Notes under the pieces: model-generated
What the model saw: the letters and a program-made list of their open reading frames with translations, nothing else
Told to the model about the DNA's origin: nothing
Database searches by the model: none
Position numbers and translations under genes: made by a program
Assembly: GCA_018436095.1 (NCBI GenBank)
Contig: JAHDMJ010000011.1
Span: 124,001 to 188,000, forward strand
DNA from: Clostridia bacterium
GTDB taxonomy: Bacteria > Bacillota > Peptococcia > DRI-13 > UBA5745
Length of the DNA stretch: 64,000 nt
Direction of reading: 5' to 3'
Shown here: piece by piece, positions 47,454 through 50,944 of the stretch
Position numbering within the stretch: position 1 is the first letter of the stretch
Layout: every line of letters starts with the position of its first letter

Positions 47454-48755
47454 TTAATGGGGCCTGGGGATGAACAGGTGAAGCCGAAAAGTACCGTTGC
47501 TGACGAAAACTCTCATCTGACCACCGTATTTATCAACGGCAGCCTGCATGCTTTCCAGACCGAGGCCCCGGCCCTTTTCCCCTTGCTTGCCGGGGAGCCG
47601 GGAGCCCCGGTATCTTTCTATGGGCTTTGCAGCTATGGGGTTTTCAATTTCACAATAGATACCTTCGTCGAAGAGGAACGTAAGAGCAATACCTAAGGAA
47701 GGGTCTTGCTGCGGCAAACGGCCGCATTCTTCTAAGGCGTTGTCCAGAGCATTGCCCAGCAAGGCCACCATATCAGCGGCATCCAGCCAGGGCAGCTCTT
47801 CCGGCAAAGTGCCTGAGGATTGGAGGGGAATACCCATTTCTGCACCTTGCCGTTTTTTTAAAAAAAGGATGGCGTCTACAGTGAAGTTGCCCGTAAATAA
47901 AGGCGGCTCCAGCTTTTGCCGCAATCCCTGAATATATTGAGAGATGCCTTCTTCCCTGCCGGCGGCAGAAAGCATCTCCAAATAGCCGATATGCTTGCGG
48001 ATATCGTGGAGAGTATGCTCCATTTGGGCAAAAGAGAATTTCAACTCCCGGTTATGCTGGTCCTGAAAGGCTTTTAGCTTTTCCAAAAGACGAAGGCGTT
48101 CTTCACTAAAGCTTTTATGATCCTGAAAACATAGATAGGAAAACACCGCCAGCATTACCAGCAAGGCAAAAAAACAGCCCAAAACCAAAAAAAGAATTTG
48201 TTTCTTTGTAAAATCCCCTAAGGGAAACATCTGAAACAGCAAGAGGGAAGTATAGAGGGCCAGCACAAAGAAAATCAGCCAATGGCGGCGGTCGCCGTCC
48301 TTACGGAAAAAGCTTCTGATGAAGAAAGCTAATATTAATGGAAGCAAAGAACGGAAAAAAAAGATGAGGATGTTGAGACTGATATCCTGAGCGGCAGCGG
48401 TTGGCGGCCAAAGCTCCGGCTGGAACAGGCAGATAATGATGGCGGTAATCCCATCGCAGGCCGTAAAAATCGTATAGGTCACAGCTATTAGAAGGGATTT
48501 CCGTTTGAGACTGCCGCGGAAGAAGAGGTGGGCCAGCAGAAAATCCGCCAGCCAGTTAACCAAAAGCCCCTGCCAATAGGCCCCGGGCCAATACAACCGG
48601 TTAATCAACTGGTAAAAGATTTGTCCCAGAAAAAAGCATAAGACGGGGCCTGCACCGGGCCGCCGGCGGGGCAGCAAAGAAGCCAGCAAAAAGAAGGTGG
48701 TAAGTGCATCAAAAAACATCATGAGACAATCGATAAATGCAATCAATAGCTCCAC
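47454..48755 (-). CDS. AgrC-like sensor histidine kinase (GHKL, HPK10 type)
   Basis: The 433-aa membrane kinase has six to seven N-terminal helices (to about residue 215), the usual AgrC sensor for a cyclic peptide. It is followed by a dimerisation region with the phospho-acceptor HTLHDIRKHIGYLEML, and a GHKL ATPase domain with the N-box ALLGNALDNALEECGRL and G-box GEKGRGLGLESMQAAVDKYG. The start overlaps the response-regulator gene by 13 bp. It should sense the peptide made from the agrBD genes just upstream on the other strand. Confidence 0.9.
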   Translation of the reverse strand: MELLIAFIDCLMMFFDALTTFFLLASLLPRRRPGAGPVLCFFLGQIFYQLINRLYWPGAYWQGLLVNWLADFLLAHLFFRGSLKRKSLLIAVTYTIFTACDGITAIIICLFQPELWPPTAAAQDISLNILIFFFRSLLPLILAFFIRSFFRKDGDRRHWLIFFVLALYTSLLLFQMFPLGDFTKKQILFLVLGCFFALLVMLAVFSYLCFQDHKSFSEERLRLLEKLKAFQDQHNRELKFSFAQMEHTLHDIRKHIGYLEMLSAAGREEGISQYIQGLRQKLEPPLFTGNFTVDAILFLKKRQGAEMGIPLQSSGTLPEELPWLDAADMVALLGNALDNALEECGRLPQQDPSLGIALTFLFDEGIYCEIENPIAAKPIERYRGSRLPGKQGEKGRGLGLESMQAAVDKYGGQMRVFVSNGTFRLHLFIPRPH

Positions 48756-49486
48756 CTTTCCACCTCTTTCAGTAGTTTGATATAAAGGCTTTTGCTGATC
48801 GGCAATAATTGGCCGTTAGCCAAAAGAAGCTGACGCCGGGACTTGTCTATTTCTTTGATCCATCCAAGATTAACGATAAGGGAACGGTGGATTTTAACGA
48901 ATTGCCGGGGCAGCTGCCCTTCCAGCTCCCCCAGTTTGCCATACCAGCTATAGCAGCCTTGGTAAGGATAGGCTTTGATCAGGCGGCCGCAACTTTCAAA
49001 GTAAAGCAGGGAATCTAAAGGGGGCAAAAAAATTTTCGTTTTATTGAAGATAAAAAAATGCCTTTCGTTTGTAAAAGGCAGCAGGTACAGCTCATCAATA
49101 ATCCGTTTAACCTTCTGCCGGGATATGGGCTTAACCAGATAGTCGAAAGCCCGGATATCATAGCCTTGCAGAGCGAATTCCCGGTAATGGGTAACGATGA
49201 CGATTGTTACAAAGGGCTGGAGTTTGCGCAGCTCCCGGGCCGTATGCAAACCGTCCAGGCCCGGCATTTGAATGTCCAAAAAAATTAGATGCGGGGGCTC
49301 CTTTTCACAGAGCCGCAGCAAATCCAATCCGTTGGTAAAGCAGTACACCGCTCCTTGCTCCGGCAAATATTCGTTAACCAATTGGCTCATTTGGTTTAAA
49401 AAAACCGGATCGTCGTCGCATAAAGCTATGCGCCTTATTCCTTTTTCACAGCCCCAAGAAGAGGCCATACTTTGATGGTCAAGCAT
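48743..49486 (-). CDS. AgrA-like LytTR response regulator
   Basis: The receiver domain (about residues 17-135: IRRIALCDDDPVFLNQM, IFLDIQMPGLDGLHTARELR with the phospho-Asp, and AFDYLVKPISRQKVKRI) is joined to a LytTR DNA-binding domain (about 145-245: KTKIFLPPLDSLLYFESCGR, KLGELEGQLPRQFVKIHRSL IVNL). This is the AgrA/VirR type that binds short direct repeats ahead of quorum-sensing genes. It starts at the ATG at 49486; an internal ATG six codons on is possible. It pairs with the kinase by gene overlap. Confidence 0.92.
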   Translation of the reverse strand: MLDHQSMASSWGCEKGIRRIALCDDDPVFLNQMSQLVNEYLPEQGAVYCFTNGLDLLRLCEKEPPHLIFLDIQMPGLDGLHTARELRKLQPFVTIVIVTHYREFALQGYDIRAFDYLVKPISRQKVKRIIDELYLLPFTNERHFFIFNKTKIFLPPLDSLLYFESCGRLIKAYPYQGCYSWYGKLGELEGQLPRQFVKIHRSLIVNLGWIKEIDKSRRQLLLANGQLLPISKSLYIKLLKEVERWSY

Positions 49487-49598: not shown

Positions 49599-50183
49599 TT
49601 GGCCTATACATTGGCGATAAAAATCAGCCGTTATCTCATCAAACGGGGCGCCGCCGCCGCCGAAGATGAAGACGTGCTGGCCTATGGCCTTTTTGACCTA
49701 TTGGCCGCTATGGAGCAAAATCTGATCTTACTGTTTTTGGGGCTTATTTTCGGTGTATTACCGCAGATTTTTTGTTATGAGCTTTTCTTTTGCCTGCTGA
49801 AGCCCAATATCGGCGGCGCCCATGCCAAAACTCACGGCAGCTGCCTGTTGATTTTTACGACGATGGCTTTTCTTACGGCTAAAGGCTCCTTCTTGTTACC
49901 TCAGTCCTGGCTTTGGCCCGGGGCTTTTGTTGGCGCCGGCCTGGCCCTGCTGCTGGTTCTCTGGCGGGGGCCCGTAATCCATCCCAATGCCCCGGCCAGT
50001 ATGCAGAAGAGAAAAAAATTCCGAGTAATCGGAATCTGCGTTGCTCTAAGCCAGACCATAGCGATCTTTTTGGCCTATAAAATTGCCGGAGAATGGGCGG
50101 CCGGGGTTGCTTTTTGCGGAAGTATGGGAGAGGCCACAGCGTCGCTGTCCCTGCTAATCCCATCACCTGACAATAATCCCTAG
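49599..50183 (+). CDS. agrB: AgrB-family peptide protease/exporter
   Basis: AgrB cuts the AgrD precursor and forms the thiolactone before export. The 194-aa membrane protein has the catalytic pair in KPNIGGAHAKTHGSC (His75 and Cys82; spacing of 7 as in Staphylococcus AgrB His77/Cys84), preceded by ISRYLIKRGAAAAEDEDVLA YGL as in other AgrB proteins, and about five helices. I set the start at a TTG (49599) because GGGAGG lies 6 nt upstream; the open frame begins seven codons earlier. agrD follows at 18 bp, and the kinase/regulator pair is divergent. Confidence 0.93.
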   Translation: MAYTLAIKISRYLIKRGAAAAEDEDVLAYGLFDLLAAMEQNLILLFLGLIFGVLPQIFCYELFFCLLKPNIGGAHAKTHGSCLLIFTTMAFLTAKGSFLLPQSWLWPGAFVGAGLALLLVLWRGPVIHPNAPASMQKRKKFRVIGICVALSQTIAIFLAYKIAGEWAAGVAFCGSMGEATASLSLLIPSPDNNP

Positions 50184-50201
50184 GAAAGGAGTGAAGCATA
50201 C

Positions 50202-50345
50202 TTGAAACAGGTTCCTAAGAGCGTACCCTTCCTGCTGCGGCAAGCCTCAACCTTAGCACAAACAAATGCCCGTCGCACCGCTGGGTTCTTCTGCAAAACA
50301 CATTTGTTTCAACCGCCAGTCCCGGACAAATTGAAGGACAAATAA
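50202..50345 (+). CDS. agrD: AgrD-like cyclic autoinducer peptide precursor (47 aa)
   Basis: A short frame begins with TTG (50202), 10 nt after AAAGGAG, 18 bp past agrB. The 47-residue product starts MKQVPKSVPFLLRQASTLAQ (amphipathic leader, basic and hydrophobic) and continues TNARRTAGFFCKTHLFQPPV PDKLKDK. It has AgrD layout: leader, a Cys-containing core, then the conserved C-terminal Q-P-x-x-P-x-x-L tail. By analogy with clostridial AgrD (C-L-W-F-T before H-Q-P-E-E-P), the ring is predicted as CKTHL, a five-residue thiolactone with GFF or more ahead. It is followed directly by a terminator. Confidence 0.88.
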   Translation: MKQVPKSVPFLLRQASTLAQTNARRTAGFFCKTHLFQPPVPDKLKDK

Positions 50346-50352
50346 ACCCTCA

Positions 50353-50377
50353 GCACCCGCCCAGCCGGGTGCCTTTT
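50353..50377 (+). terminator. Terminator of agrBD
   Basis: GCACCCG / CGGGTGC stem with a 6-nt loop followed by CTTTTT, 8 bp after the agrD stop codon. Confidence 0.85.
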
Positions 50378-50548
50378 TATTATATATTACCAATATGATA
50401 TTTTCAAGCAAATAAATATAGCAATAAGAATAAATTATATGATCATTAATATCACTAGGCTTAAAATAGTCAGAATTAGATAACATTTCCTTAATTTGAA
50501 CTATTATAATGGAGGTAGCTGCCAGGCTGGCGTATTGGGAGGGTTCAA

Positions 50549-50944
50549 ATGATTGGAAAGCGTTTGAAGGCATTGAGGGATGAGGCGGGAATGTCACAGG
50601 CGGAGCTGGCTGCTCTGATCAATGTTTCTCCCGGCATGATTTCAAAATATGAAAACGATGAGAGCAATCCTATCGATGAAAATAAGGTCAAGCTGGCAAA
50701 AGAGCTGAATACCACCACCGACTATTTGCTGGGAGCTTCCGACGAAATGCATCCCGTTGCTTACCAAATCCCTCGATACTTTCTGGAGAATGATACAGAT
50801 ACGTTAAACGAAATTATGGGTTATTTTATGTATAAGAGCGACGGAAAAACCAAGGAAATGCTGACTCTTTGGGAAAGACTGCCGGAGAAGAAAAAAGAAA
50901 GATATTTGTGGTTGATTAAAGACGAGCTAAATATAGAAGACTGA
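50549..50944 (+). CDS. XRE-family transcriptional regulator
   Basis: The 131-aa protein has an N-terminal helix-turn-helix of Cro/C1 type (MIGKRLKALRDEAGMSQAEL AALINVSPGMISKYENDESN) and a short C-terminal helical domain ending in LWERLPEKKKERYLWLIKDE, common in Clostridia. A strong GGAGGG lies 7 nt before the ATG. The 200-bp gap to agrD is AT-rich and holds only its promoter. It may regulate the Agr locus or itself; there is no direct evidence. Confidence 0.9.
   Translation: MIGKRLKALRDEAGMSQAELAALINVSPGMISKYENDESNPIDENKVKLAKELNTTTDYLLGASDEMHPVAYQIPRYFLENDTDTLNEIMGYFMYKSDGKTKEMLTLWERLPEKKKERYLWLIKDELNIED

What the first reader, a model, noticed from the sequence alone, without database searches (positions are those of the whole stretch)
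49599..50345. Agr-like locus with an overlooked 47-codon agrD and a predicted polar thiolactone
agrB (His75/Cys82) is followed by a short TTG-started gene whose product has a leader, a Cys core and the Q-P-x-x-P-x-x-L tail. The predicted ring C-K-T-H-L is unusually polar; known AgrD rings end in bulky hydrophobic residues. The kinase and LytTR regulator genes are divergent, unlike the usual agrBDCA order.
Basis: partly seen in the sequence, partly recalled or inferred. Interest (0 to 1): 0.72.

Follow-up and report, generated by a model that had tools for sequence, protein, structure and literature searches.

The report
Agr-type peptide signalling locus, polar ring
This is a complete cell-to-cell signalling locus of the known Agr kind (a processing enzyme, a tiny signal-peptide gene, a sensor and a regulator), conserved in one sister species, whose predicted five-residue ring signal is among the most polar we could find and whose two halves point away from each other, an arrangement seen in no other lineage we sampled.

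Summary
agrB (49599-50183, His75/Cys82) is followed 18 nt later by a 47-codon agrD (50202-50345). A same-genus genome (L032) has the same locus: its AgrD differs at 3 residues apart from the start codon (TTG here, ATG there), ring and tail are identical, and dN/dS is about 0.14. The product fits the [C/S]-x4-[Y/H/F]-[Q/E]-P-x-x-P rule shared by AgrDs beside AgrB across the phylum (108 distinct rings here). An MS-proven C. thermocellum peptide places the cut before the aromatic residue, so the ring is C31-K-T-H-L35.

CKTHL is very polar (rank 3-4 of 108) but ends in leucine, and 41 of 108 rings end in non-bulky or polar residues. Other very polar rings lie in the same AgrB clade. The leader is also unusually polar, so the curated AgrD model fails (12.3 bits against 19) and annotation would probably miss the gene. 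The divergent agrAC/agrBD layout is real: 2 of 141 sampled AgrB loci, both in this genus. Split agrBD/agrCA operons are already known.

Verdict: a genuine, probably functional Agr system, a new member of a known kind. Peptide, sensing and targets are untested.

The parts
49599..50183 (+). agrB, membrane cysteine protease that processes AgrD (194 aa, TTG start)
   Evidence: PF04647 E 2.7e-26; His75 and Cys82 in columns invariant in 135/135 AgrBs; 83.5% identical in L032
50202..50345 (+). agrD, 47-aa signal precursor (TTG start; leader 1-30, ring Cys31-Lys-Thr-His-Leu35, recognition tail Phe36-Lys47)
   Evidence: Position 18 nt after agrB; shared tail rule in 108 distinct AgrD cores; conserved in L032 with dN/dS about 0.14; TIGR04223 12.3 bits, below the cut-off of 19
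48743..49486 (-). agrA-like response regulator, receiver plus LytTR DNA-binding domain
   Evidence: PF00072 E 3.4e-21, PF04397 E 4.2e-17; 89.9% identical in L032
47454..48755 (-). agrC-like sensor kinase: membrane N-terminal part, H-box LHDIRKH, N-box GNALDNALEE, GHKL ATPase; overlaps the agrA end by 13 nt
   Evidence: PF14501 HATPase_c_5 E 8.3e-12; motifs read in the translation; 78.6% identical in L032
49487..49598 (.). 112-bp shared control region between agrA and agrB; block GGTnAGCTTAAGCAnGATnATTCCGGCTATAGTnGGTGTAAAACCCC conserved in L032
   Evidence: Alignment; no clear LytTR direct repeat found, so the AgrA site is not shown
50353..50380 (+). intrinsic terminator after agrD (GCACCCGCCCAGCCGGGTGC then CTTTTTATTA)
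   Evidence: stem and T run identical in L032

Best explanation
A complete one-copy Agr-type quorum-sensing locus made of two divergent operons, agrBD (+) and agrAC (-), that share a 112-bp control region. Shown from sequence: the genes, catalytic residues, motifs, conservation and terminator. Inferred from homology: AgrB cuts AgrD between Leu35 and Phe36, and the Cys31 thiol closes a five-residue thiolactone Cys-Lys-Thr-His-Leu. An unidentified protease removes the leader, leaving none or a few residues (for example FF or GFF) in front of Cys31. The AgrC-like kinase senses the secreted peptide and phosphorylates the LytTR regulator, which acts on the shared control region and on other genes not identified here.
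For: AgrB family and catalytic residues. AgrD conserved in the sister genome under purifying selection, with identical ring and tail. The core matches the phylum-wide rule [CS]-x4-[YHF]-[QE]-P-x-x-P next to AgrB. In C. thermocellum the same spacing (nucleophile to second Pro, 10 residues) was shown by LC-MS/MS to give a five-residue ring cut before Tyr30 (PMC5322536). LytTR regulator and GHKL kinase adjacent and syntenic in both genomes. Chance expectation for the core downstream of agrB about 0.0003.
Against: TIGR04223 is below its cut-off (12.3 against 19), and the leader matches neither that model nor the signal-peptide-like leaders of most relatives. Only two genomes carry this version, and other family members sampled lack AgrB. 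No AgrA binding repeats were found. Nothing links the kinase to the peptide except adjacency.
Confidence: 0.86

Rival explanations
1. agrBD works, but the final product is a homodetic cyclopeptide or a linear peptide, because an exotail-free Cys-thiolactone rearranges by S-to-N acyl shift.
For: Exotail-free AIPs such as that of Listeria rearrange spontaneously, and exotail-free peptides occur in several Gram-positive species (PMC11297923). The exotail here cannot be predicted.
Against: The leader lacks the Ala-x-Ala-type end directly before Cys that many relatives show (compare), so Phe residues may stay attached and protect the thiolactone.
Confidence: 0.25
2. The ring has six residues, Cys-Lys-Thr-His-Leu-Phe, as predicted for C. 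acetobutylicum-type systems.
For: Six-residue rings are reported and predicted in some clostridia (PMC10301443; CVLVTL in PMC12312760). It would end in Phe.
Against: Spacing from nucleophile to Q-P-x-x-P equals that of the MS-proven five-residue C. thermocellum ring, whose cut lies before the aromatic residue (PMC5322536).
Confidence: 0.08
3. The small ORF is a chance reading frame or a decayed remnant and the locus is a plain AgrB-like protease beside an unrelated two-component system.
For: TTG start, no Pfam hit, sub-threshold TIGR04223.
Against: Conserved in L032 with ATG at the same start, purifying selection, ribosome-binding site, position and core motif.
Confidence: 0.03

Closest known systems
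Agr systems with separate agrBD and agrCA operons in Clostridium acetobutylicum (PMC10301443, PMC12312760)
   Same: AgrB, AgrD, GHKL kinase and regulator encoded together but in separate transcription units
   Different: Here agrBD and the two-component operon are divergent and the regulator gene precedes the kinase gene; the C. acetobutylicum ring is six residues, CVLVTL
Clostridium thermocellum AgrD Clo1313_2818 (PMC5322536)
   Same: Five-residue core followed by an aromatic residue, with the same 10-residue spacing to the second Pro
   Different: Ser lactone instead of Cys, and not beside recognisable agrB, agrC or agrA genes
Staphylococcus aureus agrBDCA
   Same: Same set of parts; AgrB His/Cys pair; five-residue Cys ring; LytTR regulator
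   Different: One BDCA operon plus RNAIII there; ring rich in hydrophobic residues (CDFIM, CSSLF, CDFLL, CYFIM; PMC12312760)
AgrBD loci of the same class (L004, L005, L015, L050, L061)
   Same: Same AgrB clade in the tree (support 0.94) and also very polar rings (CDGPF, CDGPY, CSGPY, SRDDF); QPPVP tail shared with L005 and L061
   Different: Kinase upstream on the same strand, hydrophobic leaders, AgrB only about 25-30% identical

Membership tests
AgrB (PF04647) | Profile match above the curated cut-off | tested here: met
   92.5 bits against 23
AgrB (PF04647) | Catalytic His and Cys in GGxHA-x6-C spacing | tested here: met
   His75 and Cys82, columns invariant in 135/135
AgrD | Small gene next to agrB on the same strand | tested here: met
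   18 nt downstream, 47 codons
AgrD | Cys or Ser, four residues, aromatic or His, then [QE]PxxP | tested here: met
   CKTHL-F-QPPVP fits the rule seen in 108 distinct cores
AgrD (TIGR04223) | Curated model above cut-off | tested here: not met
   12.3 bits against 19, match limited to residues 31-45; six other AgrDs from the sample score 32-45 bits
AgrD | Amphipathic or hydrophobic leader that holds it at the membrane | tested here: inconclusive
   Second most polar leader of 108; maximum helical moment 0.54, reached by 6.8% of shuffles
AgrC/AgrA two-component pair | Polytopic GHKL kinase with H, N and G boxes, and a LytTR regulator | tested here: met
   PF14501, PF00072, PF04397; motifs in the translation
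Agr quorum sensing | Secreted cyclic peptide sensed by the adjacent kinase | not testable with these tools
   Needs culture, MS and a reporter strain

The most novel reading that the evidence does not exclude
A cationic, aromatic-free autoinducer ring (CKTHL) that its receptor reads by polar or charged contacts rather than by the usual hydrophobic patch, made from a leader that is processed differently from the signal-peptide-like leaders of relatives, as part of a clade with a tendency to polar rings.
Probability: 0.15. Interest if true: 0.5.

Novelty: new member of a known kind. Interest (0 to 1): 0.32.

Why it matters
It adds a complete and conserved Agr locus in a poorly known clostridial lineage, with a signal gene that standard models miss. 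The same genome-context search (AgrB plus the C/S-x4-[YHF]-[QE]-P-x-x-P rule) would recover other missed signal genes. A cationic ring without aromatic residues would test how far the hydrophobic-patch model of AIP-AgrC recognition, built on staphylococci, holds elsewhere.

Tried and rejected
A search for LytTR-type direct repeats in the shared control region gave only one 11-nt pair with 55-nt spacing that is absent from the sister genome. Sigma-70-like promoters near agrB were not convincing. A second agrB or agrD in the same genome: none found (for AgrB; for AgrD, weak hits only). Loci L083 and L087 first seemed to share a divergent kinase; the divergent ORFs in L087 and the complete one in L083 are about 175-aa membrane proteins without a visible kinase domain, so they were not counted as parallels. 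A 16S search to name the organism found nothing. The clostridial cyclopeptide paper of Molloy et al. 2021 is not held, so it was not used as evidence.

Full report
What is there. On the plus strand an AgrB gene starts with TTG at 49599 behind GGGAGG and ends at 50183. Pfam gives AgrB (PF04647) with E 2.7e-26. In an alignment of 135 AgrBs, its His75 and Cys82 fall on the two invariant catalytic columns, and the invariant Gly73 and Pro125 are present too. Eighteen nucleotides later a 47-codon gene starts with TTG at 50202 behind AAAGGAG; its product is MKQVPKSVPFLLRQASTLAQTNARRTAGFFCKTHLFQPPVPDKLKDK. A G+C-rich hairpin with a T run follows at 50353. On the minus strand, divergent from agrB with 112 bp between them, lie a LytTR response regulator (49486-48743) and a membrane GHKL sensor kinase (48755-47454), which overlap by 13 nt.

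Is agrD real? The genome G004 in the same genus, which has the same locus as the record L032 (MAG: Clostridia bacterium isolate SM1-B15.1), carries all four genes in the same order. Its AgrD has ATG where the window has TTG, behind the same ribosome-binding site. Apart from the start codon only three residues differ, all in codons 5-8. The remaining four codon differences are synonymous. dN is 0.029 and dS 0.21 (few sites, so rough). The core pattern occurs once in the window in six frames, and about 0.0003 would be expected in 400 nt downstream of agrB.

What ring? I collected AgrB loci from relatives and across the phylum and read the small genes beside AgrB. This gave 108 distinct cores that follow Cys/Ser, four residues, Tyr/His/Phe, Gln/Glu, Pro, two residues, Pro. 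The window's C-KTHL-F-Q-P-PV-P fits exactly. Sixty-eight use Cys and forty use Ser. For one such precursor, C. thermocellum Clo1313_2818, the ring Ser25-Phe29 with a cut before Tyr30 was confirmed by LC-MS/MS, and its conserved Pro is at 35 (PMC5322536). The spacing from nucleophile to that Pro is 10 in both, so a five-residue ring CKTHL is the best prediction. Six-residue rings are reported for C. acetobutylicum-type systems (PMC10301443, PMC12312760) and are not excluded.

How unusual is it? By Kyte-Doolittle sum of the four ring residues CKTHL ranks 4th most polar of 108, by the Wimley-White interface scale 3rd. It is one of 15 without an aromatic residue, the only one with Lys directly after the nucleophile and the only one with His at ring position 4. 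It is not the extreme: SRDDF and CDGPY are more polar. Those two, with CSGPY and CDGPF, come from loci (L005, L015, L050, L004) that fall in the same AgrB clade as the window (13 tips, support 0.94, long branch), so polar rings look like a tendency of that clade. The claim that known rings end in bulky hydrophobic residues fails as a contrast on two counts: this ring ends in Leu, and 41 of 108 rings end in H, G, A, S, N, R, T, Q or K. The leader is the second most polar of 108 (mean Kyte-Doolittle 0.06 against a median of 1.47). This is why TIGR04223 matches only residues 31-45 and stays below its cut-off (12.3 against 19), whereas six other AgrDs from the sample score 32-45 bits. Automatic annotation would therefore probably miss the gene; whether it did was not checked.

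Gene order. Among 141 distinct AgrB loci with about 1.5 kb of flank, a LytTR gene divergent from and upstream of agrB was seen in only two, the window and its sister. Where both partners were found, the usual pattern was kinase upstream and regulator downstream of agrB, all on one strand (28 loci). Many loci had neither partner within the flank, so the count is a lower bound. Reports of split agrBD and agrCA operons exist (PMC10301443, PMC12312760), so separation as such is known. I found no description of the divergent form, in a library that lacks most subscription papers.

How it most likely works. AgrB removes the tail and closes the thiolactone; a second, unknown protease removes the leader; the AgrC-like kinase senses the product and the LytTR regulator acts on the shared 112-bp region. 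The genes and their conservation are shown; every step after transcription is inferred from the family. A conserved block in the control region may hold the AgrA site, but no direct repeats of LytTR type were found. AgrC's membrane part is 82.7% and its kinase part 77.3% identical between the two genomes, while the ring is identical, so both species probably share one signal.

Limits. The locus is known from two genomes. Other genomes sampled in the family lack AgrB, some of them incomplete. The organism could not be named beyond the sister record. Functional claims need the experiments listed.

Noticed in passing
L016:1006-1458, L017, L024 and many loci from the order and class: An ORF of about 150 aa sits directly upstream of agrB in many relatives. 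It matched the iterated full-length kinase profile but not the kinase-domain profile, and two examples have no Pfam family. Possibly a divergent partner protein of these AgrBD pairs.
   Followed up: partly
for example L005, L010, L011, L018, L083: Forty of 108 distinct AgrD cores in the phylum carry Ser instead of Cys, so lactone rather than thiolactone signals are probably common.
   Followed up: partly
L022/L044 (G018:C166) and L072 (G129:C59): agrB is interrupted by an in-frame TGA while an intact-looking agrD remains in L022/L044.
   Followed up: no
window 50202-50548: agrD and the stretch downstream to the XRE-family gene are unusually conserved at the DNA level against L032 (93% and 89%; agrD dS 0.21 against 0.55-0.90 for neighbours), which might reflect an overlapping regulatory element.
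   Followed up: no
window 50549-50944: Small XRE-type repressor (HTH_3, best NCBIfam similarity RstR/DicA, below cut-offs) directly after the agrBD terminator, 94.7% identical in the sister genome.
   Followed up: no
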